From positions 1,612,001-1,676,000 of the forward strand of contig NZ_JACHMC010000001.1 in assembly GCF_014204815.1 (NCBI RefSeq): a stretch of 64,000 nt of DNA, given 5' to 3'. The position numbers and the translations under genes were made by a program. The first letter of the stretch is position 1; each line of letters begins with the position of its first letter. The notes beneath the pieces were generated by a model. It had not been told where the DNA came from and did no database searches. It was given only the letters and a program-made list of their open reading frames with translations. This stretch comes from Micrococcus flavus. Its GTDB lineage: Bacteria > Actinomycetota > Actinomycetes > Actinomycetales > Micrococcaceae. Shown piece after piece: positions 49,023 to 60,603 of this stretch.

Positions 49023-50164
49023 GCGCTCCGGCGCCGGGCCACCTGCTCCGCGAGGTCCAGCAGCGCGGCGGCCGAGGCGTCCCACGTGAACCGCGCGGCC
49101 TGGGCCACGGAGGCCCGCGAGGCCGCGGAGAAGACGTCCGGGTCCTCCAGCTCCCGGACGTGCCGTGCGAGGGCGGCGCCGCGGTCGCCCTGCAGGGGGA
49201 CGCCACGCCATGCGGCGGTGCCGGCGCCGGCCACCTCGCAGAACACGGGCAGCTCGGAGCACACGACCGGGGTGCCGTGCGCCTGGGCCTCCGCCACGGG
49301 GAGGCCGAACCCCTCAGCCCGGGACAGGGTCACGGACGCGGTGGCGCGGCGCAGCAGCCGGACGTACTCCGCCTCCTCGACTCCGTCGTGGAAGACCACC
49401 TCCGCCCCGTGCGCGCCGCGCCGGCCACGGGCGGCGGTCAGGTGCGCCTCGAGGGCGCGACGCCGCTCGTCGTCGACCCGCGAGAGCAGGTGCAGCGTGT
49501 AGCCGGGCAGGAGAGGGGCGGCATCGAGCACGGACTCGACGTCCTTGTAGGGCATGAACGAGCCCATGTAGAGGATCTCCCGGGCCGGAGGCTGGAGCGG
49601 GTCGCGCGGTGCGGCCACCGGCTGCGGGGCGTTCGGCACCACCCGGACGGGGCGCCGAGTCAGGCGGTGCCGGGCGATCAGGTCCGCTGTGGTCTGCGAG
49701 ACGGTGGCGACGGCGTCGGCGCGGTCCAGGAGCAGCCGCTGCGGCGTGTACGCCAGGTGGTACGCCCGCCACAGCCAGCGCAGCGGCTCGGGGAGGTCCC
49801 CGGGCGGGGTGGGGTGCTCGTGGTAGATGAGGTCGTGCAGCGTGAGGATGAGTCCGTGGCATCGGCCCCACGAGCCCATGGTCTGCAGGGGCGAGAACAC
49901 CACGTCCGGGTCGATCCGGCGGATCTGCCGCGCCACCCACGGCTCGCGGGCGGAGGTCGGCGAGGAGATCCGGTGCCAGGGGACGCCGGCCGGCAGCAGC
50001 CGCAGCTGGCGCTCGTCCGAGATCAGCATCTCCACGCGCACGCGGCCCGGGTCCGCGGTGCGGTGGACGGCCTCGACCAGGCTGGCGCCGTAGCGGGAGA
50101 TGCCGTCGTGGACGTCCACGCGGGTGTAGCGGGCGTCCATGAGCAGCAGCAGGGGGCGGGTCAC
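49019..50164 (-). CDS. Glycosyltransferase family 4
   Basis: 381 residues with the GT-B fold. The C-terminal donor-binding motif EGFGLPVAEAQAHGTPVVCSELPVFCEVAG and ILYMGSFMPYKDVESVLDAA are present. There is no membrane segment, so it acts at the inner face with a nucleotide-sugar donor; the acceptor is unknown. It overlaps the end of the M23 gene, with which it converges, by four bases. The GTG start follows a TAGCGT box by six bases. Confidence 0.85.
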   Translation of the reverse strand: MTRPLLLLMDARYTRVDVHDGISRYGASLVEAVHRTADPGRVRVEMLISDERQLRLLPAGVPWHRISSPTSAREPWVARQIRRIDPDVVFSPLQTMGSWGRCHGLILTLHDLIYHEHPTPPGDLPEPLRWLWRAYHLAYTPQRLLLDRADAVATVSQTTADLIARHRLTRRPVRVVPNAPQPVAAPRDPLQPPAREILYMGSFMPYKDVESVLDAAPLLPGYTLHLLSRVDDERRRALEAHLTAARGRRGAHGAEVVFHDGVEEAEYVRLLRRATASVTLSRAEGFGLPVAEAQAHGTPVVCSELPVFCEVAGAGTAAWRGVPLQGDRGAALARHVRELEDPDVFSAASRASVAQAARFTWDASAAALLDLAEQVARRRSA

Positions 50165-50170
50165 ACCCCC

Positions 50171-50176
50171 ACGCTA
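50171..50176 (-). promoter_or_regulatory. -10 box of the glycosyltransferase gene, leaderless start
   Basis: TAGCGT on the minus strand, six bases before the GTG at 50164. Confidence 0.4.
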
Positions 50177-50280
50177 ACGGCCGCGCACGCCGCCGACGGA
50201 GCGAATCCTCCGCAGCGGCGGCCCGGTCCGGCGCATGCCGGAGGGGGCGCGGTTCTGCGCTTCGACATGCGATTTCCTCC

Positions 50281-50351
50281 GAACGGCGACCGTTCACATT
50301 GCGTTTCGGTAACGATCCGGTACGGTAGGTCACGGTTCGGTCACGTGACCG
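50281..50351 (+). promoter_or_regulatory. Regulatory region of the LysM-NlpC/P60 gene
   Basis: Three signals lie in a row: the inverted repeat GAACGG-CGA-CCGTTC (50281-50295), a direct-repeat-like pair GTAACG (50309-50314) and GTACGG (50320-50325) spaced one helical turn apart, and the perfect 14-bp palindrome CGGTCACGTGACCG (50338-50351). The message would have a leader of about 140 bases before the TTG start. No riboswitch consensus was recognised. Confidence 0.45.
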
Positions 50352-50490
50352 AGACCACTCTTCCCTTCGCCGGACGTCTCCGTCGCCCGGTCAGCCCCGA
50401 TCACCTCTCGTCCCGGTGGGCCGGCATTCCGTCCCCGTGACCGCTCCCCGAGCGCCGCGTCCGCCCCCCCCCTCACCTCATGGAGCCACC

Positions 50491-51360
50491 TTGACCGAGC
50501 ACGCCCTCGCCCCCGCCCGTCGCGTCCGCACCTCCTCGGCCACCCTGGCCTTCGCCTTGGGCGCGAGCGCCCTCGCCACCGCCGGCGCCGCCACCGCCGT
50601 GGTCGCCCCCGCCGCCCAGGCCGCGGAGACCACCTACACGGTCCAGGCCGGTGACGGCTGGTGGATCATCAGCCAGCGCACGGGCGTGTCCACGTCCCAG
50701 CTGAGGCTCCTCAACGGCATGACGTCCAGCGACCTGCTCCACCCGGGCATGGTCCTGAAGACCTCGGGCGCCGTCTCCTCGACCACGACGTCGGGCACGT
50801 ACACGGTGCAGCCGGGTGACGGCTGGTGGATCATCAGCCAGCGCACCGGCACCTCGATGTCCACGCTGCAGCAGCGCAATGGCATGACGTCCTCCACCAT
50901 GCTGCACCCCGGCATGGTCCTGAAGACCACCGGCACCACCACGGCCCCCGCTCCGGCCCCGGACCCGGTCATCCGCCAGTCCTCCGGCAAGCAGGCCGCG
51001 ATCGACTTCGCGCTCGCCAAGGTCGCCGATCCGAACACCTACTACCTCTGGGGCGGCAACGGCCCGTACGGGTACGACTGCTCCGGGCTGACCAAGGCCG
51101 CCTTCGCGCAGGCGGGCATCACGATCCCGCGCACCTCGCACGACCAGTACATGGGCGCCCGCTCCTACCACTCGCTGTCCGACGCGCAGCCCGGTGACCT
51201 CGTGTTCTGGTCCAACCAGTCCACCGGCCGCATGTACCACGTGGCCATCTACCTCGGGAACGGCAAGATCGCCCACGCCCTGAACCCCACCGACGACCTC
51301 GTGGTCACGAGCATCGACATCATGACCTCCAACCGCATGGCGGTCGTCGGCCGCTACTGA
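50491..51360 (+). CDS. Secreted LysM-LysM-NlpC/P60 peptidoglycan hydrolase
   Basis: 289 residues from a TTG start with GGAG seven bases upstream. A signal peptide to about residue 45 (AAQA/AE) is followed by two LysM repeats, each containing GDGWWIISQRTG (about 48-92 and 101-145), and an NlpC/P60 domain (about 165-285). Catalytic Cys in GYDCSGLTKAAF and His in YHVAIYLGNG are present. It should cleave stem-peptide bonds in the cell wall during growth or division. The N-terminal ARRVR tail precedes the hydrophobic core. A strong terminator follows. Confidence 0.92.
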   Translation: MTEHALAPARRVRTSSATLAFALGASALATAGAATAVVAPAAQAAETTYTVQAGDGWWIISQRTGVSTSQLRLLNGMTSSDLLHPGMVLKTSGAVSSTTTSGTYTVQPGDGWWIISQRTGTSMSTLQQRNGMTSSTMLHPGMVLKTTGTTTAPAPAPDPVIRQSSGKQAAIDFALAKVADPNTYYLWGGNGPYGYDCSGLTKAAFAQAGITIPRTSHDQYMGARSYHSLSDAQPGDLVFWSNQSTGRMYHVAIYLGNGKIAHALNPTDDLVVTSIDIMTSNRMAVVGRY

Positions 51361-51378
51361 GCCGCCCACCGCGACGAT

Positions 51379-51416
51379 GTCGGCCCCCGCCCTGGACTGT
51401 CAGGGCGGGGGCCGAC
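51379..51416. terminator. 16-bp perfect hairpin terminator
   Basis: GTCGGCCCCCGCCCTG and its complement with a six-base loop. It ends the NlpC/P60 gene and, before the island inserted, would also have been the terminator of the tRNA gene reading toward it. Confidence 0.8.
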
Positions 51417-51427
51417 GTCGTGCCGGG

Positions 51428-51465
51428 GTAGGGCGTGCGGGGCTTGAACCCGCGACCCAGGGATT
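51428..51465. repeat. Left attachment repeat: copy of the tRNA 3' half
   Basis: 38 bases identical to 60529-60566. They cover the tRNA from the anticodon-loop 3' side through variable loop and T arm to the acceptor end, plus one extra base beyond the discriminator. Identity stops abruptly on both sides, the expected footprint of site-specific integration in a tRNA gene. Confidence 0.9.
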
Positions 51466-51623
51466 CAAGAGGCCTGGTGCGCGTCACCATCCGATGGTGT
51501 GCGTCAGCCGCACCAGCACGCCGATTCTGGGCCCTGCCCTGCCCTCTCCCCTGCCGTCATTTGCCGTCCCAACGCCTTGAAAGCGGTGGGTAAGCGGTGG
51601 GGATGTAGCGGGTCATGCAGTCG
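51466..51623. other. Island left end, candidate integrase/excisionase binding region
   Basis: 158 bases without a gene. It holds an inverted repeat CACCAT-CCG-ATGGTG (51485-51499) and a tandem pair AAGCGGTGGG (51581-51590 and 51592-51601), one helical turn apart. Such short repeats beside an attachment core resemble arm-type integrase sites, an inference only. Confidence 0.35.
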
Positions 51624-52298
51624 TCAGAGTTCCCACTCCCACTTGTTGCCGCTCATCGGCTCCTCGAGGAGCAGCACGCCCGACTCGGCGGGGACGTCCA
51701 GGAGGATGACCCCGCTGCTCTTCTCCCCCTCTCCGATGTCGGTCTTGAGCAGGTCCGCGATCGGGATGCAGCTGTAGGTGGCGAGCGTGGCGAGGTCACC
51801 GCTGAATGTCTCCCCGTCCTCGCCGATGAAGCGGAAGCGGCCACCGTTGAGGATCTCCCCGTCCACGTACTGATCGTCGGCGCCGGGGAACACCTCGAGC
51901 TCGGCCTCGAGAGCGACCAGCGAGCCGTTCTCGGGCGCGGTGGGGTCAGGCTCCGTGCAGGTGACCTCGGTAGAGATGTCGTTGATCGTGAACTCGATGA
52001 GGCTCTCACCGTCGGGGGTCGTCAGGCCTGCCATCTCTCCCGGCTGCTTCACGAGTGCACCTCGCGGGCTGATGGATCCCGTTGCGGCGCTAGCGGTGGT
52101 GGGCGACGCCGAGGCCGCGGAAGGCGCCGCCGGCTCTGCGGCTGGCGACATTGCCGCCCCCGGTGATGCCGTCACCGTCTGGGTAACCGTGACCGTGGGA
52201 GAAGATGTCCCACCGTCGGCGGCACAGCCGGTCAGGAGCGCGGCACCACTCCCGAAGAGGGTGAGTGCGAGGAGGGAGGGGGCTTCGAAGCGCGACAT
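51624..52298 (-). CDS. Island-encoded lipoprotein of unknown function
   Basis: 224 residues. The signal sequence has the lipobox LLTGC (Cys near residue 25), then a Ser/Thr/Ala/Pro spacer to about residue 75 and an acidic beta-rich domain with one Cys pair (TCTEPD and YSCIP). No family was recognised. A TAGGCT box lies six bases before the ATG. Lipoproteins on prophages sometimes block superinfection; nothing in this sequence proves that role. Confidence 0.75.
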   Translation of the reverse strand: MSRFEAPSLLALTLFGSGAALLTGCAADGGTSSPTVTVTQTVTASPGAAMSPAAEPAAPSAASASPTTASAATGSISPRGALVKQPGEMAGLTTPDGESLIEFTINDISTEVTCTEPDPTAPENGSLVALEAELEVFPGADDQYVDGEILNGGRFRFIGEDGETFSGDLATLATYSCIPIADLLKTDIGEGEKSSGVILLDVPAESGVLLLEEPMSGNKWEWEL

Positions 52299-52304
52299 GA
52301 GCCC

Positions 52305-52310
52305 AGCCTA
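52305..52310 (-). promoter_or_regulatory. -10 box of the island lipoprotein gene
   Basis: TAGGCT on the minus strand, six bases before the ATG at 52298. Confidence 0.45.
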
Positions 52311-52569
52311 GGTGGTGCACCAACTGGGTGAGCAGTGTGCCGGTCTACGCCGTGCCCACGCTCCCCGGCTGGCCTCGCGCTCTTCCGGTAGCGGTGGAAG
52401 TCCGGGCCGGCTCACCTCGGGACGACGTGCGTTATCGCGCGCAGAGACCTCCACGGGTGGAACATGGGCGCACCGTAGCGGTGAGGTGCGACACGTTACG
52501 CGGCGCCCGCTTCGCAGATGTTGCCCCGCGTCCCGGGGCCGCCCAGGGGCGTGTGCGACGATGGAACGC

Positions 52570-53025
52570 ATGCGTGAACAGATGTGGATCGTCGGCCACG
52601 GGTACGAGGGGCGCACGATCGCCCAGTACGTCGCCGACCTCTCCGCCTGGCGCGCGGACGTCGTCGTGGACGTCCGGCTCAACGCGATCTCCCGGAAGAA
52701 GGGCTTCTCCAAGACAGCTCTCCGGGCAGCGCTCACGGACGCCGGCATTCGCTACGAGCATCGCCCGGAGCTGGGCAACCCGAAGGACAACCGGGGCGGC
52801 TTCTGGGCCCCGGGCTCGGCCGACCACGCCCAGGCAGTGCATCGGTTCGGCGAGCTGCTCGGGGCGGACGCCGCACTGGAGGCTGTTCAGGAAGTGGCCG
52901 ACATGGCCAGATCCGAACGCGTCGTGTTGCTGTGCTTCGAGGCCTCTGAGCGGTGCTGCCATCGGCAGGTGGTGCTCGAGCGGGTGAAGGCGGTCGGCGC
53001 CGCGCGTGAGCTCGTGACCGCCTAG
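52570..53025 (+). CDS. DUF488-family protein
   Basis: 151 residues. The DUF488 signature is seen as IVGHGYEGRTIAQYVADL, DVVVDVRLNAISRKKGFSKTAL, YEHRPELGNP, and the C-terminal LLCFEASERCCHRQVV. The family is widespread near mobile elements, but its biochemical role is not established. The ATG at 52570 follows a GACGAT box by seven bases; an ATG at 52561 is also in frame. The stop codon TAG is part of the CTAG target into which the first insertion sequence jumped, so the protein is intact. Confidence 0.82.
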   Translation: MREQMWIVGHGYEGRTIAQYVADLSAWRADVVVDVRLNAISRKKGFSKTALRAALTDAGIRYEHRPELGNPKDNRGGFWAPGSADHAQAVHRFGELLGADAALEAVQEVADMARSERVVLLCFEASERCCHRQVVLERVKAVGAARELVTA

Positions 53026-54121
53026 GTGTGATGTCCAGGGACGTTGTTGCGTGAACAGCTGACAGGCGAAGGCCTCCTGTTGCGAGAGTGGAGTTGTCGA
53101 GAAACCGCTCACGCGAACAGAAGGCCTTCATGTCCCACGCTAACGCCGCCCTGACCCCTCGCGCCCGCCTACGCCTGGCCAAGCTCATCGTCGAGGAGCA
53201 CTGGCCGGTCGCCACCGCGGCCAAGATGTTCATGGTCTCCCCACCCACCGCACGCAAATGGGCCACACGCTTCCGGGCCGAGGGACCTGCAGGGATGGCA
53301 GACCGGTCCAGCCGGCCGTCCACGATGCCGACCAGAACACCGCCGGCGGTGGTGAAACAGATCGTGGCCGCCCGATGGCGCCGACGCCTCGGGCCGGCAC
53401 AGATCGCCGGAGAACTCAGGATGCCGGCCTCCACCGTCCATGCCGTGCTCGTGCGCTGCCGAATCAACCGCCTCGCCCGTCTGGACCGGGTCACCGGCGA
53501 GCCGATCCGCCGCTACGAGCACCCCCACCCCGGCTCGCTGATCCACGTCGACGTCACCAAGTTCGGGCGCATCCCCGACGGGGGCGGACACCGATTCGTC
53601 GGGCGCCGGCAGGGCCTGAAGCACCGCGCGGCGACCTCGGACCGCGAAGGAACCCGTGATGCCCGATACCAGCCCCGGCTCGGGGTGGGCTTTCTGCACA
53701 CCGTGATCGATGATCACTCCCGCTTCGCCTATGTGGAGATGCACTCCGATGAACGCAGCCAGACGGCCATCGCGGTGTTGCGCCGCGCGGTCGCCCACTT
53801 CGCGCGCCTGGGCGTGGAGGTGGAGCGGGTGCTGACGGACAACGGCTCGGCCTACCGCTCGCATGCCTGGCGTGATGCCTGCACCGAGCTCGGGATCAAG
53901 CCCAAGCGGACTCGGCCCTACCGGCCGCAGACGAACGGGAAGATTGAGCGGTTCCATCGCACGCTCGCTGACGGGTGGGCCTACGCCCGGTTCTACAGCT
54001 CAGAGACGCAGCGCAGGGCCGCGTTGCCTGGATGGCTGCACTTCTACAATCATCATCGCGTCCACTCCGCGATCGGCGCCGCGCCTGTCACCAGGCTCAA
54101 TAACCTCCCTGGACATCACAC
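53026..54121 (+). mobile_element. IS481-family insertion sequence, copy A
   Basis: 1096 bp. Terminal inverted repeats start GTGTGATGTCCAGGGACGTTG at the left and end with the complement (...CCCTGGACATCACAC) at the right. It is flanked by CTAG at 53022-53025 and 54122-54125, the IS481-type target duplication. The right CTAG is shared with copy B. Confidence 0.88.
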
Positions 54122-54125
54122 CTAG
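53130..54125 (+). CDS. IS481-family transposase, copy A
   Basis: 331 residues. An N-terminal helix-turn-helix (HWPVATAAKMFMVSPPTARKWATRF) is followed by a DDE integrase core: Asp in LIHVDVTKFG, the HTVIDDHSR block, Asp in LTDNGSAY, and Glu in TNGKIERFHRTL. The frame is intact. The stop TAG is supplied by the duplicated CTAG target beyond the right inverted repeat, so the element itself has no stop codon. Confidence 0.92.
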   Translation: MSHANAALTPRARLRLAKLIVEEHWPVATAAKMFMVSPPTARKWATRFRAEGPAGMADRSSRPSTMPTRTPPAVVKQIVAARWRRRLGPAQIAGELRMPASTVHAVLVRCRINRLARLDRVTGEPIRRYEHPHPGSLIHVDVTKFGRIPDGGGHRFVGRRQGLKHRAATSDREGTRDARYQPRLGVGFLHTVIDDHSRFAYVEMHSDERSQTAIAVLRRAVAHFARLGVEVERVLTDNGSAYRSHAWRDACTELGIKPKRTRPYRPQTNGKIERFHRTLADGWAYARFYSSETQRRAALPGWLHFYNHHRVHSAIGAAPVTRLNNLPGHHT

Positions 54126-55216
54126 GTGTACCCGGTCAGGACGTTGGTGGCACGAGGGAGCTTGAACAAAGGAGAACCTCCGGGTGGGATGTGGCTTGTC
54201 TAAGGCCCACATCACAAACCCAGAGGTTCTCATGTCCCACGGTAGCGCCCGCCTAACCGTTCACGGTCGTCGACTCATCGTCCAACGCCACCAAGCCGGA
54301 TGAACTCAAGCCCACATCGCCGCCGCGATGGGGGTCTCACGAAAATGCGTGAAGACCTGGATCGACCGGTACGCGTGCGAGGGCGATGCAGGCCTGGCCA
54401 CGCGTTCCTCCCGCCCCCACACCAGCCCCACGAGAACTTCTACAGCCACGGAGCAGGCGGTGCTCACCGCTCGCGCCGAGCACCGGTACGGGCAGGACCG
54501 TCTTGCCCCGCTCACCGGGGTTCCAGCACGCACGATCGGCAGGATCCTGCATCGTCATCACGTGCCCCGCCTGGCCGCATGCGACCCGATCACCGGGGAG
54601 GTGATCCGTTCTTCGAAGACGACCACGCGCCGGTACGAACGAGACCGGCCCGGGGAGCTGGTCCACGTGGACGTGAAGAAGCTGGGCAAGATCCCCGAGG
54701 GCGGGGGCTGGAGAGCACGAGGACGCGCGGCGACCGAGGCTGAGAAAGGCCGGCGCCCCAAGATCGGATACGACTACGTGCACGCGATGGTCGATGACCA
54801 TTCCCGCCTGGCCTACGCCGAGGTCCTGGCCGACGAGACCGGGCAGACGTGCGCGGGATTCCTGCAGCGGGCCGCGGCGTACTTCGCCTCTCGGGGGATC
54901 ACGAGGATCGAGCGTGTCATCACGGACAACGCGTTCGCGTATCGCCATAGTGCAGCGTTCCGGGCCGCGGTGGCCGGGCTCAGGGCCAAGCAGAAGTTCA
55001 TCCGCCCGCACTGCCCGTGGCAGAACGGCAAGATCGAGCGGTTCAACCGGACGCTGGCGATCGAGTGGGCCTACCGGCAGGTGTTCACCTCCAGTGCTCG
55101 CCGACAGGACGCGCTTGCCCCGTGGTTGGAGTACTACAACACTGAGCGGGGTCACGCCGCGCTCGGAGGACACCCGCCCATGAACCGGGTGCCACCAACC
55201 TCATGACCGGGTACAC
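54126..55216 (+). mobile_element. IS481-family insertion sequence, copy B
   Basis: 1091 bp, ends GTGTACCCGGTCAGGACG...GACCGGGTACAC. CTAG lies on both sides (54122-54125 and 55217-55220). The sequence differs clearly from copy A, so this is a second IS type that entered the same target, in the same orientation. Confidence 0.88.
54232..55206 (+). pseudogene. IS481-family transposase, copy B, interrupted by an in-frame TGA
   Basis: Frame from ATG 54232 to the TGA at 55204-55206, 324 sense codons plus one internal stop. The internal TGA at 54301-54303 is codon 24; reading continues in frame into VSRKCVKTWIDRY and the full DDE core (LVHVDVKKLG, AMVDDHSR, ITDNAFAY, NGKIERFNRTL). Aligned with copy A, the TGA falls exactly on a Trp (HW-PVATAAKMFMVS against AG-stop-TQAHIAAAMGVS), so a TGG to TGA change is the simple explanation. 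Internal initiation at the ATG 54328 would lack the first part of the DNA-binding domain. Confidence 0.8.
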
Positions 55217-55219
55217 CTA

Positions 55220-56160
55220 GGGCGTGTCTGAGAATGAATCCAGGGGCCGGATGACACCCTGGAGGACGTGTCTCGTTTCCAGATGCTCTCCGATGCCCAG
55301 TGGGAGCTGATCGCCCCGATGCTCCCAGCCAGGACGGGCCGACAGGGGCGGCCGTTCGCCGATGCCCGCACGATGGTCGAGGCGATCATCTACCGGTACA
55401 GGTGCTTCGATCCCCTGGCGGGATCTGCCCGAGGTCTACGGGCCCTGGCAGACCGTGTGGACCTGGCATCGGCGCTTGGCCGAAAAAGGCACATGGGACA
55501 CGGTGCTGGCCACGCTGACCGCCGCAGCTGACGCCGAAGGCCTGATCGATTGGTCGGTCTCGGTGGACTCCACGATCGCCCGCGCCCACCAGCACGCGAC
55601 GAACATCACCCGCCACACAGGGGGATGGATCGAACTACAAGAATCCGCGTGAGGAGCCGGCCGATCACGGCATCGGGCGCTCCCGTGGCGGGCTGAGCAC
55701 GAAGATCCATCAGCTCGTCGATGGGACCGGGCGGCCGCTGGTCAGCCTGATCACCCCCGGCCAGGCAGGGGACTCCCCGATGCTGCTTCCTCTTCTGGAG
55801 CAGCTGCGCGTGGCCCGGCCGGCAGGCCGGCCCCGGACCCGCCCCGAGGCGGTGCTGGGCGACAAGGCCTACTCCTCCCGGGCGATCCGCACCCACCTAC
55901 GTGCCCGCGACATCAAGGCGGTCATCCCCGAACCGGCCGACCAGCAGGGCCACCGCAGACGCCGCGGCACCCGCGGCGGCCGACCCGTCGGCCTCGACGC
56001 GGACGCCTACCAGGGGCGCAATGTAATCGAGCGCCAGTACGCGCACCTGAAGCAGTGGCGGGGTCTGGCGACCCGGTACGACAAGTACGCGATCGTCTAC
56101 CGGGCTGCCGTGATCCTGAACGCGGTGATCGCGTGGTCCAAACTATTGTCAGACACGCCC
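55220..56160 (+). mobile_element. IS5-family (IS427-group-like) insertion sequence
   Basis: 941 bp with inverted ends GGGCGTGTCTGAGAAT and ATTGTCAGACACGCCC (one mismatch). A TA dinucleotide lies on each side (55218-55219, 56161-56162), which is the expected target duplication. The target is again the centre of CTAG, at the right edge of IS copy B. Confidence 0.85.
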
Positions 56161-56163
56161 TAG
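55268..56163 (+). pseudogene. IS5-family transposase, two frame changes
   Basis: The first frame runs MSRFQMLSDAQWELIAPMLPARTG to IIYRYRC. From about 55405 the family sequence continues in the next frame (IPWRDLPEVYGPWQTVWTWHRRLAEKG, then VDSTIARAHQHATNITRHTGG). From about 55630 it continues in the third (NYKNPREEPADHGIGRSRGGLSTKIH, LGDKAYSSRAIR, RNVIERQYAHLKQWRGLATRYDKYA). The second change is where IS427-type elements normally use programmed frameshifting between orfA and orfB. The first looks like a one-base insertion (TGCTTCG) that disrupts the gene. Confidence 0.75.
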
Positions 56164-56482
56164 TACTAGTTCCAGTACCGAGACTGATCCGGGTACCGGC
56201 CCCCCATCGGCAGCGTGTGCATCCTGTGACACCCCCGCCCCACACAGGCGCCCACCGGCGCCGCGAACGGCCCGCAGGCGGCCACGCAACCCCTCCATCC
56301 CCAGCCGGCCCCGACGGGCGGCGGGCCAGGGGGCGGGGCGGCAGCTCCCAGCTCCACACCCCCACGCGCCATAACTCACGCCACGCGTGATGCCATCCCT
56401 ACGCCACACCCGCAGTCATATTCTTGATTTGCCACAGCATATCTTGGACAGATAAACAGAGATGCACATACCATTCATGCAT
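56164..56482. other. Gene-free spacer between the IS array and the low-GC patch
   Basis: About 320 bases. It begins with TACTAG next to the IS end and a small GTAC...GTAC inverted repeat, continues GC-rich to about 56410, then turns abruptly AT-richer. No gene or clear promoter is seen. Confidence 0.4.
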
Positions 56483-56956
56483 TCACCTGAATAATGGGCA
56501 CGCCTCACTTTTAAAAGTGCTTTCGTCAGAATTCTTCGGCACCGTAAAACACGCATTTGCCTTGTATGGTCGATCGTCAATCACGTCATTGTCATATTCG
56601 GCATGGATTCGAATACTTATACTATCTTCACCTACATCAACTACTTCCCAGGAGTAACCTGGATCAAATTCGAATGAGGCCCAATCGCCAATACTGAGCT
56701 TCTTTACCGAATGGTCGCCACTATCATCGTGAAGCTGGGCCACCAACCTGGGCATCAATTGACCCTCCGAATATGCTGCTACACGCTTGTCGTAATCAGT
56801 TTTGTGAAAATATTTGCAATATACAAATCCTAAGACCACGGCGCAGATTACTGCAACGCTATAAGCGACTGGCCTGTAAATAGGCTTTCTCTGCCCACCT
56901 AGACTAGTTTTCACGACCGGGTCAGAATGATTCTCCAGAGCCTGGAACCTTGGCAC
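56483..56956 (-). CDS. Low-GC hypothetical membrane-anchored protein
   Basis: 157 residues. A short basic N-terminus is followed by one transmembrane helix at about 30-48 (VAYSVAVICAVVLGFVY) and an outer domain of about 105 residues with an acidic, beta-rich pattern and two Cys near the end (NACFTV, EACPLF). No family was recognised. Base composition is clearly lower in GC than anywhere else in the window. The start lies 35 bases inside the end of the upstream M15-like fragment. Confidence 0.65.
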   Translation of the reverse strand: MPRFQALENHSDPVVKTSLGGQRKPIYRPVAYSVAVICAVVLGFVYCKYFHKTDYDKRVAAYSEGQLMPRLVAQLHDDSGDHSVKKLSIGDWASFEFDPGYSWEVVDVGEDSISIRIHAEYDNDVIDDRPYKANACFTVPKNSDESTFKSEACPLFR

Positions 56957-57359
56957 TATCTATCCTATCATTATTGACAATCTTCTGCGCTAATTTCTTC
57001 GACGTAACCCCCAAGGCTTTTCTCGTCATAAAGAACAGCGACTCGTCAGGAACCGCCAGGTCACCACCCCAGCTGATCTGCCCTTCCATTTCCCCTAGGA
57101 TCTCATAAATCGATGCCACTTGAATGGGATCAAAGTTTCCCTTTACGCCATAAGGAAAGTAGTTCGGTGCGACATCAACGGCCGTTGCAGAAAGGCGGTT
57201 GGACCGCTCCCTAGAGAGGACCCTTCGATCTACCATATGCGCAACAGACGCACGTTCGTTAATATTCATCACCTCATAATGGAATCTACGTACAACACGC
57301 AGTAGAATTGCAGCCGTTTCGTCTCTTCGGAGAACTAGTTTGAGGCCGGTTCCATCTAG
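56922..57359 (-). pseudogene. Degenerate M15-peptidase-like (endolysin-type) fragment, low GC
   Basis: About 145 residues read in frame from a point where GC-rich DNA stops. The pattern ILLRVVRRFHYEV ... SNRLSATAVD ... FPYGVKGNFDPIQVASIYEIL ... ISWGGD ... PDESLFFM matches the M15 D-Ala-D-Ala peptidase layout SNHxxGxAxD ... WGGD ... DEMHF, recalled from phage lysins. The His of the first motif is Arg and the His of the last motif is Leu, so the zinc site is gone. The 5' end seems to be missing at the junction with the HIRAN partner gene; an ATG at 57269 could start a shorter product of 115 residues. Confidence 0.5.
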
Positions 57360-57556
57360 GTCGAATCGGGCCCCGTGTCCTCGCGCAAGCGGATCCCGGC
57401 GACGCAGACTGTGTCCCCGTACTTCTGGGACGGCTGCGGGGTCGCCTTCACCGTGATCAGCACGCGGGCCGCCTTGGGCCGACGGTCGGTCTCCTTGGGG
57501 TAGAGGGCCCGGCCGTCTCCGACCATGAAGAAGAGGGCGCCGCCGAACTCGCTCAC
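57356..57556 (-). CDS. Small partner of the HIRAN protein, possibly truncated
   Basis: 66 residues from the GTG at 57556, which overlaps the HIRAN gene stop as GTGA. The segment GDGRALYPKETDRRPKAARVLITVKATPQPSQKYGDTVCVAGIRL looks like the conserved start of a larger globular protein. It ends (DTGPDST) exactly where base composition drops from GC-rich to low GC. The likely reading is that the 3' part was lost in a recombination event. Function unknown. Confidence 0.55.
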   Translation of the reverse strand: MSEFGGALFFMVGDGRALYPKETDRRPKAARVLITVKATPQPSQKYGDTVCVAGIRLREDTGPDST

Positions 57557-59010
57557 GCGCCCTCTCCGTCGCCCGGGTCCTGGTTCTCTTCGCCGACGCC
57601 GCCCCACTCCCGGTCCTGCTGGTCACGAGGTGTGAGCGGACCCGCAACGGATCCGCCGCGGTCAGCCTCGAGCGCGGAAGCTTTCCGAAGCTGGTCCGGG
57701 CCAGCAACGAACACGATGACGAGGGCCGCGATGGTCAACAGCGGTCCGATCCCTGGGATGCCGGCCAGCAGCAGGCCCAGAAGTGTGATGCTGACCAGTG
57801 CGATCCAGGCGGTACGCCGAGGGTGCTTGCCCGCGTTCGAGCGTTCACGATCGTCAACGAACACCTGCTTACCCTTGACCGTGTAGAAAACCGGTCGCCG
57901 CGGACCGGAGCCTTCGCCGAGGCGTACGACGGTGTCGCTAAGGCGGACGGGCAGCGGGTTGACCGGAGGCTGGGGTGCGGTGCGCTTCTTCGGCGCAGCC
58001 GGCACCGCCGACGTGGCTCCGGGCCGAGAGGCAGGGGCACCCTGAACGCGGTCGGATCCGCCGTCCGCACGGAGACCGGCCACGTCCGCATAGCCCGCTC
58101 GTGCGATCGCGGAACTCCCAGAGCGCGGTCCCGTCTGGCGAGTGGTGTTCTCCTTGCCCTTGGGCTTCCCCTGGTAGGTGTTCGGGACGTCGTAGGTGTG
58201 GGCCTCGGGCACAAGCCGCGGGAAAAGCGGCATGTCCCGCAACCATTGATCTGTGAGCTCAGTGGACTTGGCGCCCTTGATCGTCAGCTCTGCAGCGAGG
58301 CCGGATCCGGTGATGGTGCCCCACACGCCCACGACGCGCCCCATACCGTCGGCGTGGTCGATCACGGGCAGGTAGTGGGCTGACGTTGCCGTGGTGAGTT
58401 CGCCGGCTTTCTGCCCGTCGAGGCGAACTTCAACGGTTCGACGCACGTTGCCATTGCGGAGCGTCGTGTCCGCTGAGTGCAGGGTCAGCAGCACTGGCCC
58501 CTTGCCCGACTTGGGCACGAAGTTGAACAGGTGCTCGAAGTGCTGGTCTTCCTTCGTCACCTGGTAGGTCTGTCGCCCGTACGGCAGGACGCTGGTCGTG
58601 GCCGGGTAGCCATCGTTCAGCGGCGCCATCCAGTCGGGCTCGGGCAACCCGACCCAGGCGCTGATCTCCAGCTCGCCCCGATAGTCCACGTACGCGTAGA
58701 GACGAGCGCTCGAGCGCAGCACGGCTCCCGACGCGACGATCCGCTTGATCGGCAAGTGGTAATCCGCAGCTAGCTCACGGGAGAGGTACCCGATGACCTG
58801 TCCCTCCGCTCGGACCGAAACTGCACGTCGGTCATAGGGGTTGTCCGGCTCGGGCACGATCTCCACAGGCACGGTTGCCTCTGCCGGAGCACCGTCTGCC
58901 GGAAGGCGTGGCAGCGCCCGCAGGAGGGCCTCCTTGTATGCGAACTCACCCACGAGTTCGACGCCGTTATACCCGCCATGGGGCAACTCGTAGTGCGTCG
59001 TCTCCGGCAT
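57553..59010 (-). CDS. HIRAN-domain membrane protein
   Basis: 485 residues. The N-terminal HIRAN-like domain (about 15-110) shows VELVGEF, VEIVPEPDNPYDRRAVSVRAEGQVIGYLSREL. HIRAN domains bind DNA ends or modified DNA in helicases such as HLTF, though stand-alone bacterial versions are uncharacterised. A middle beta-rich region (TLHSADTTLRNGNVRRTVEVRLDGQKAGELT, about 180-250) resembles a second HIRAN-like unit. A Pro/Ala linker follows, then two membrane helices at about 405-440 (LVSITLLGLLLAGIPGIGPLLTIAALVIVFVAG). The ATG has GGGAGA upstream. It is the largest intact gene of the island. Confidence 0.72.
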   Translation of the reverse strand: MPETTHYELPHGGYNGVELVGEFAYKEALLRALPRLPADGAPAEATVPVEIVPEPDNPYDRRAVSVRAEGQVIGYLSRELAADYHLPIKRIVASGAVLRSSARLYAYVDYRGELEISAWVGLPEPDWMAPLNDGYPATTSVLPYGRQTYQVTKEDQHFEHLFNFVPKSGKGPVLLTLHSADTTLRNGNVRRTVEVRLDGQKAGELTTATSAHYLPVIDHADGMGRVVGVWGTITGSGLAAELTIKGAKSTELTDQWLRDMPLFPRLVPEAHTYDVPNTYQGKPKGKENTTRQTGPRSGSSAIARAGYADVAGLRADGGSDRVQGAPASRPGATSAVPAAPKKRTAPQPPVNPLPVRLSDTVVRLGEGSGPRRPVFYTVKGKQVFVDDRERSNAGKHPRRTAWIALVSITLLGLLLAGIPGIGPLLTIAALVIVFVAGPDQLRKASALEADRGGSVAGPLTPRDQQDREWGGVGEENQDPGDGEGA

Positions 59011-59193
59011 GGCGGTCTCCCTCGTCGTACTGGCTCTCCTCGCCCGCTACGTCCAACTCCCTCCCGGCCGCCAGGTTTAGGCCCGGGTGCGCGGTGAGGT
59101 TGGCACGGCAAGAACCGGGCATGGTCGCGAGCATAACGCCCACTAAGAACGAACGATGAGGACGACGCGGGGCGGGCCCTTGTCCCGCTGCCG
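59011..59193. other. Spacer between HIRAN gene and phage head pseudogene
   Basis: 183 bases with no gene, no strong hairpin and no clear promoter. Confidence 0.4.
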
Positions 59194-59985
59194 CTACTCG
59201 CCTTTGAGCTGCTTCACCGTGGTGACGCGCCACGAGTCCCGCCAGGCCGGCGTCTCGTGCTTGGTGGTCATGTCCTCCCAGGCCGCGGCGCCGTCCTGGT
59301 AGAGCTTGAACCGGTCGGGCCCCATGATCCTCCGCTGGGATTCCACGGTGAGGCCGTCGAATCATGCGCGGGCGTCAGGGATCGTGCTGGGCGGCTCCAC
59401 GCTGCCGGGGAATCCGAGCTCGACGGCGGTCTTGGTGAGCGGCAGGCGGGTGCAGCGGCCGTTCTGGTGATCGTTCGGCCCGTACTCGTCGACGGGGTAC
59501 TCGGTCCCGTGCTTGACGAGGCACGACACGCAGGTGCGCTTGTCGAACGTGGTGTACCACACCCAGCCCTTGAGGATCCCCCGGTTGCTCTGTTCGGCGG
59601 CGTGCTGGGCCACCCGGTGGGCGTCGAGCTGTTCTGTCCTGGCGATGCGTTCACCGCGGACGGCGCCGCCCATGAACGCGCCCTCGAGCTGAGTCATGAT
59701 GCGTCGGGCCGTCTGCCGCGGGGTCGCCCCGACAACGATCCCGTTGCGGAGCTGGGCGCGCATGACGGGGACCATGGTGTCCGGCAGGGGGAGGGTCAGG
59801 GCGTGGATCGTCTGGGTGGTGCGGGCGACGATCGCGTCCGCGGCGGTGAGGTCGAGCGCCACCCAGGACGGCAGGGTCGGGAGGTGCTGGAGCTGGGCCA
59901 GGGCGGCGGAGCGGGAGGCGTCCTCGGCCATGGTGACGATCTCGAGGATGGTGGCCGCGGTGGACTCGTTGGCGGTCTGGGCCAT
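59194..59985 (-). pseudogene. Phage minor head (SPP1 gp7-like head morphogenesis) protein, in-frame TGA
   Basis: A frame of 264 codons from ATG 59985 to TAG 59194 with one internal TGA at 59362-59364. Before it, the head morphogenesis signature is seen: RIARTEQLDAHRVAQHAAE, a Cys pair in DKRTCVSCLVKHGTEYP, and NDHQNGRCTRLPL. After it, the frame goes on as FDGLTVESQRRIMGPDRFKLYQDGAAAWEDM, the usual C-terminal tail of this family. A Trp is expected at the TGA. It is the only recognisable phage structural gene in the island. Confidence 0.78.
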
Positions 59986-60488
59986 GTGATCCCCAGGCAA
60001 CCACCAAGGCGTTAGACCGCCGCCGGAATAGGGTGCGGCATCCCAGCCTCCGCTATGCGTCGTTGGTGATGCTGTGGGGGGCGCTGCTCTGTGGACCCAG
60101 CGTCCGCCCCCACTCATTCCTGCTCCAGGTTGGCGCTCTTGGCGGAAACGGCTTCCCGGTCTTCGCGATCCTTGATGTGCGAACCGAACCCGGTTAAGCC
60201 TTCGTGGGTTCCAGCGGCACGTCGGTGTTCTCAATGGGCCCAGCGAACACCTCACCGATGGTCAATTGTCGACGGTGTCAGCAACCTGAATTCTTAACGG
60301 CCAGCATGGGAGATGACGGGTCTGGTGGCCCTCCCGGTAGCCGCGACCATGAAATTCCCCTTGCGGTCCAAACAAGCATCCGACCGCCGAGGTCCAGATG
60401 CACTCGCAGGTCCAGAGCGAGTCATTGAACAGCCCGCACGAATGCGGCGGGTATCCGATGAATGGCCCTGATCAAGCCTGACAGGAGC
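59986..60488. other. Gene-free stretch at the island right end
   Basis: About 500 bases upstream of the phage head gene. Long open frames here are low-complexity and match nothing recognised. GC content is lower around 60190-60430. Confidence 0.4.
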
Positions 60489-60528: not shown

Positions 60529-60566
60529 GTAGGGCGTGCGGGGCTTGAACCCGCGACCCAGGGATT
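60529..60566. repeat. Right attachment repeat, within the intact tRNA gene
   Basis: 38 bases identical to 51428-51465. The crossover edge lies in the anticodon loop of the tRNA, a known class of integration position within tRNA genes. Confidence 0.9.
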
Positions 60567-60603
60567 ATGAGTCCCCTGCTCTGACCGACTGAGCTAACGC
60601 CCC
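60530..60603 (-). tRNA. tRNA with anticodon CAU (elongator Met or Ile2)
   Basis: 74 nt folding as a full cloverleaf: acceptor GGGGCGT/ACGCCCT (one G-U pair), D stem GCTC/GAGC, anticodon stem GGGGA/TCCCT with loop CTCATAA, variable loop GGGTC, T stem GCGGG/CCCGC with TTCAAGC, discriminator A. CCA is not encoded. A CAU anticodon fits elongator Met or, with lysidine, Ile2; the sequence alone does not decide. The gene is the island attachment site and remains complete. Confidence 0.92.

What the first reader, a model, noticed from the sequence alone, without database searches (positions are those of the whole stretch)
53022..56163. Three different insertion sequences stacked end to end in a single CTAG target
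The order is CTAG, IS481-A, CTAG, IS481-B, CTAG, IS5-type, CTAG. Each junction shares the four bases, so each later element entered the target edge of the earlier one. CTAG appears scarce in the GC-rich DNA here. The arrangement makes a ready-made IS landing hot spot and a record of successive insertions.
Basis: seen in the sequence. Interest (0 to 1): 0.7.

Follow-up and report, generated by a model that had tools for sequence, protein, structure and literature searches.

The report
Three mobile elements stacked at CTAG
Three small jumping DNA elements from two unrelated families sit end to end in a Micrococcus-like chromosome because all of them enter the same rare four-letter site, which each insertion copies and so leaves open for the next.

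Summary
Two different IS481-family elements and one IS5-family element lie end to end at CTAG, which is rare here: 20 in the window against 56 expected.

IS481 duplicates six bases (NCTAGN), IS5 four (CTAG). The hexamers show that the right-hand IS5 came first and the IS481 copies landed in its left CTAG. The IS5 and IS481-B genes are broken and A is intact, so the likely order is IS5, B, A.

It is not a composite element: in a related genome, A|B and B|IS5 pairs exist in other orientations. Stacks recur in the genus, 15 of 28 A-type copies, 9 of 13 in one genome, in both insertion orders. That exceeds random landing on all CTAGs. In 80 loci drawn mostly from other genera the excess is weak (4 of 133 ends against 4 of 427, p = 0.096).

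Tandem IS pairs sharing the target motif are in print (B. pertussis), as are transposase stop codons supplied by CTAG. This is a well-resolved example of a known kind; whether IS ends are truly preferred landing pads stays open.

The parts
52312..53025 (+). Host ORF with DUF488 domain; its TAG stop codon lies in the leftmost CTAG, so it is not cut by the array
   Evidence: Pfam PF04343, E 1.7e-24, residues 105-224 of 237; ORF end 53025. The real start may be further in (inference).
53021..53026 (.). CCTAGG, left target duplication of IS481-A
53027..54120 (+). IS481-A, intact; transposase ORF 53088-54125 ends in the TAG of the next CTAG
   Evidence: inverted repeats, Pfam, a 99.7% copy at G000:C1:27310-28413
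54121..54126 (.). CCTAGG shared by IS481-A and IS481-B
54127..55215 (+). IS481-B; transposase frame from ATG 54232 has a TGA at 54301-54303, reopens as ORF 54328-55206
   Evidence: inverted repeats, Pfam; both full-length copies in G008 lack that stop
55216..55221 (.). CCTAGG shared by IS481-B and the IS5-type element; CTAG is 55217-55220 and the last G is the first base of IS5
55221..56159 (+). IS5-type element with orfA and orfB (IS427-like layout, label recalled); extra base near 55405 shifts orfA; orfB frame ends in the TAG of the last CTAG
   Evidence: inverted repeats, Pfam, alignment with seven other copies
56160..56163 (.). CTAG, right target duplication of the IS5-type element (followed by T, not G)

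Best explanation
Three independent insertions at one shared palindromic target. An IS5-type element first entered CTAG at the stop codon of the DUF488 gene, making a 4-base duplication. IS481-B and then IS481-A inserted at the left-hand CTAG, each making a 6-base NCTAGN duplication. Because the target is duplicated, a complete target stays on both sides of every element; where CTAG is rare, IS edges become a sizeable share of all landing sites. Shown: boundaries, duplications, recurrence of independent pairs, and (by hexamers) IS5 before the IS481 copies. Inferred: B before A, and that scarcity plus survival at harmless sites drives most of the pile-up.
For: Exact junctions and repeats. Hexamer logic: left CCTAGG, IS5 junction CCTAGG, right CCTAGT; 47 of 57 readable IS481 relatives have identical hexamers; 6 of 7 IS5 copies in this genome have CTAG on both sides. 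Independent pairs of the same elements in other orientations in G008. Both insertion orders seen among IS481|IS5 stacks: IS5 first in window, L183, L271; IS481 first in L266, L267; three of the eight in the table undecided. B and IS5 carry lesions that the compared copies lack, A is intact.
Against: No empty site was found: neither flank occurs in the other 10 genus genomes. The order rests on a single base (G against T), which a point mutation could change. Triple stack L262 has hexamers that no simple order explains.
Confidence: 0.88

Rival explanations
1. IS481 transposases actively seek the ends of existing IS elements, as IS30 does with its own inverted repeats, so the stack reflects end recognition and not target scarcity.
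For: 9 of 13 A-type copies stacked in G006, while random landing on about 470 CTAGs gives 1.6 to 2.0 and never 9 in 2000 runs. IS30 inserts next to its own repeats (PMC9333248, passages).
Against: Neighbours are often IS5, whose ends do not resemble IS481 ends, and IS5 also enters IS481 edges. About 70 to 100 usable CTAGs would explain the count without preference. The excess is weak in the set drawn mostly from other genera (p = 0.096).
Confidence: 0.25
2. The array is one composite element that moved as a unit.
For: Left and right outer sites share CTAG.
Against: Outer hexamers differ. 0 of 34 matching plasmid records cover 80%. In 396 genomes of the order the A|B junction occurs only in the own genome. 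In G008 the A|B and B|IS5 pairs have other orientations.
Confidence: 0.02
3. Recombination between IS copies, or an assembly error, brought the elements together.
For: Related copies exist to recombine with. L262 hexamers do not fit simple insertion.
Against: In the window each junction is exact to the base with the duplication each family makes; the same kinds of junction occur in other genomes.
Confidence: 0.05

Closest known systems
Side-by-side IS1002|IS481 and tandem IS481 in Bordetella pertussis (PMC4734536, passages)
   Same: Neighbouring IS481-family copies at one site, sharing the 6-base motif
   Different: Two elements of one family; the motif is printed there as NCATGN; here three elements of two unrelated families, with the order readable from unequal duplications
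TnRErm46 / ISRe46 of Rhodococcus equi (PMC6794481, passages) and ISLxc2 / ISLxx4 of Leifsonia xyli (PMC2516522, passages)
   Same: IS481 family, NCTAGN duplication, transposase stop codon supplied by the target; host genes may keep theirs
   Different: Not reported as stacks in the passages seen
ISMysh01, an IS5-family element with CTAG direct repeats in Mycobacterium shottsii (PMC9241763, passages)
   Same: IS5 family, about 930 bp, CTAG duplication
   Different: Single ORF there; here orfA and orfB in different frames
IS30 insertion beside its own inverted repeats (PMC9333248, passages)
   Same: Insertion next to existing IS ends makes tandem elements
   Different: IS30 recognises its own repeats; here the common factor is a shared target between unrelated elements

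Membership tests
IS481 family (A and B) | Single transposase with HTH, DDE integrase core (rve) and the IS481 leucine-zipper region | tested here: met
   PF00665, PF13683, PF13011 for both
IS481 family (A and B) | Short inverted repeats starting TGT and a 6-base NCTAGN duplication | tested here: met
   47 of 57 relatives of A with identical hexamers. All 12 near or more distant full-length B relatives listed with both ends have CTAG at each end.
IS481 family (A and B) | Active transposition | not testable with these tools
   A is intact with a near-identical second copy; B carries a stop
IS5 family (third element) | DDE_Tnp_1 transposase with DUF4096 N-terminal part | tested here: met
   PF13340, PF01609, PF13586
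IS5 family (third element) | Two overlapping reading frames joined by frameshift (IS427 group, recalled) | tested here: inconclusive
   The orfA/orfB layout and the GGGGG run at 55620-55624 are kept in all 8 aligned copies; frameshifting itself cannot be tested
IS5 family (third element) | 4-base CTAG duplication | tested here: met
   6 of 7 copies in this genome; the seventh has TTAG on one side
Composite transposon | Whole array at more than one place, or one outer duplication of the size the outer elements make | tested here: not met

The most novel reading that the evidence does not exclude
In CTAG-poor actinobacteria the edges of IS elements are the preferred landing pads of a guild of CTAG-targeting elements from two unrelated transposase families and several IS481 lineages. 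Each insertion adds a target, so stacks grow by themselves and draw insertions away from the rest of the genome, beyond what the number of tolerated CTAGs predicts.
Probability: 0.3. Interest if true: 0.6.

Novelty: new member of a known kind. Interest (0 to 1): 0.42.

Why it matters
Unequal duplication lengths (6 against 4 bases) make such stacks readable records of insertion order. Their frequency in one genus offers a natural test of why elements crowd together: rare targets, harm done at other sites, or a transposase that seeks IS ends. The stop-codon habit suggests how a common element can sit at gene ends without breaking the genes: 24 of 50 insertion sites end a coding-like ORF against 18 of 144 other CTAGs.

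Tried and rejected
Empty site: sought with the left flank and the right flank in 11 genus genomes; only the own genome carries them (the other matches are short, 30-52 bases), so none was seen.

Stacking excess outside the genus: tested in 80 loci (the best 80 of 402 relatives; a few are Micrococcus): 4 of 133 ends against 4 of 427 other CTAG sides, p = 0.096; three of the four background hits belong to two of the stacks themselves.

Stop codons in G006: a crude gene caller (coverage only 0.70) put 2 of 69 sampled CTAGs at stops and found no host gene ending at any of 13 A loci; with the ORF rule, 3 of 68. So the habit seen in the wider set is not visible in that genome.

Composite element: rejected. 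RNA features: no Rfam match in 50000-60000; one tRNA-Met at 60529-60603, unrelated. Literature searches; stacks came up only for B. pertussis (PMC4734536).

Full report
WHAT IS THERE. Three elements lie end to end: IS481-A (53027-54120), IS481-B (54127-55215) and an IS5-type element (55221-56159). Their inverted repeats end exactly at the CTAG sites. Pfam puts A and B with IS481 and the third with IS4/IS5. CTAG is scarce in the window, 20 against 56.4 expected. Eleven of the 20 lie in the stack (4) or just right of it, 56166-57356 (7), so it is scarcer still elsewhere. The closest relatives of A are in Micrococcus and the genome has 2.55 Mb; no tool names the species.

ORDER OF EVENTS. IS481 relatives of A duplicate six bases: 47 of 57 elements with both hexamers readable have identical NCTAGN. 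These elements were paired by having CTAG at both ends, so CTAG itself is not tested there; the identity of the two outer bases is. IS5 copies in this genome have CTAG on both sides in 6 of 7 cases; L020 has TTAG on one side. In the window every IS481 edge reads CCTAGG, and the last G left of IS5 is IS5's own first base; right of IS5 the site reads CCTAGT. Had an IS481 come first, its left hexamer should be CCTAGT. So IS5 came first, unless one base has mutated. A and B cannot be ordered by duplications. Decay suggests that B is older: B has a TGA at 54301-54303 that both full copies in G008 lack, while A is intact and has a 99.7% copy elsewhere. The IS5 copy has an extra base near 55405 that the seven copies aligned with it lack.

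NOT A COMPOSITE. Genome G008 of the same genus has two full B copies. One abuts an IS5 copy in the opposite orientation; the other abuts an A in the opposite orientation, itself interrupted by another long ORF. These are separate pairing events. 0 of 34 plasmid records with a match cover 80% of the array.

HOW OFTEN. In 396 genomes of the order, 45 A-type ends with CTAG were listed, in 23 genomes; by their outward bases five abut another IS end: G375, G126, G203 (IS5-like), G351 and the own genome (IS481-like). One search adds G402; its G035 match was not counted, since the flank lacks the usual repeat. In the 80 loci, 4 of 133 ends do so against 4 of 427 sides of other CTAGs (p = 0.096). Inside the genus (11 genomes) it is far commoner: of 80 IS5 ends, 11 abut an IS481 end and one another IS5 end. 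Of 28 A-type copies paired are stacked: G006 9 of 13, G000 1 of 2, G003 1 of 3, G004 1 of 2, G005 0 of 1, G007 1 of 3, G008 2 of 4. Some neighbours are remnants or bare ends (L269, L276). Triple stacks occur in the window, three times in G006 and once in G008 with an IS5 remnant. Of eight IS481|IS5 stacks tabulated, IS5 is first in three, IS481 first in two, and three are undecided. So each family uses the other's edges.

MORE THAN RANDOM? A 400 kb sample of G006 holds 71 CTAGs, about 470 in the genome. Random landing of 32 or 45 elements on 470 sites stacks 1.6 or 2.0 of 13 A copies on average, and 9 was never reached in 2000 runs each. With 100 usable sites the chance of 9 or more is 0.06 or 0.18, with 70 it is 0.20 or 0.42. 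The element numbers are assumptions. So either most CTAGs are not tolerated as insertion sites or IS edges are preferred; the data do not separate the two.

STOP CODONS. The A transposase and the IS5 orfB frame end in the TAG of the target, and so does the DUF488 ORF on the left. In relatives of A, 67 of 75 readable stops are that TAG; the eight others are TAA in CTAA (4), TAG in TTAG (3) and one TGA. Insertion sites end a coding-like ORF in 24 of 50 cases against 18 of 144 other CTAGs in the same loci (p = 1.3e-6). In G006 this is not seen. Stops supplied by CTAG are already published for ISLxc2 and TnRErm46 (passages). PMC9208149 reports an excess of IS481 between convergent genes (passages).

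KNOWN OR NEW. Six-base NCTAGN (PMC3053399, passages; Stibitz 1998 seen only as a reference entry), CTAG repeats of an IS5 relative (PMC9241763, passages), borrowed stops, and side-by-side IS1002|IS481 sharing the motif (PMC4734536, passages) are all in print. In my searches I did not find cross-family stacking or its frequency in Micrococcus. PMC13189705 says that the function of IS481 in M. luteus has not been investigated in detail (passages).

Noticed in passing
L211 (G000:C1:1211936-1212034): About 75 bases bounded by IS5-type ends and CTAG on both sides, like a miniature element without transposase; end pairs at the same spacing are listed in G002, G003 and G007. In G003 the pair abuts an IS481-like end.
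   Followed up: partly
G000:C1:1212008, G002:C1:2468298, G007:C2:104122: The same outward flank follows an IS5-type end in three genomes, as if one CTAG were occupied in several lineages.
   Followed up: no
L147, L148, L150, L030: A-type IS481 ends 2.3 to 3.7 kb apart with extra DNA between left end and transposase, like cargo-bearing IS481 transposons; L148 and L150 share part of it.
   Followed up: no
L264:1300-2431 and L263:1900-3028 (G006): IS481-like ends (TGTACTG...) beside ORFs that look like regulators by eye instead of a transposase; not searched.
   Followed up: no
L261 and L263 (G006): Two IS5 copies end in CTAA on the far side, which still gives a stop codon (TAA).
   Followed up: no
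L273:1194-2136 (G008): IS5 copies joined at CTAG, with a further IS5-like end beyond the second.
   Followed up: no
window 56166-57356: Seven CTAGs in 1.2 kb just right of the stack, a much higher density than elsewhere in the window.
   Followed up: no
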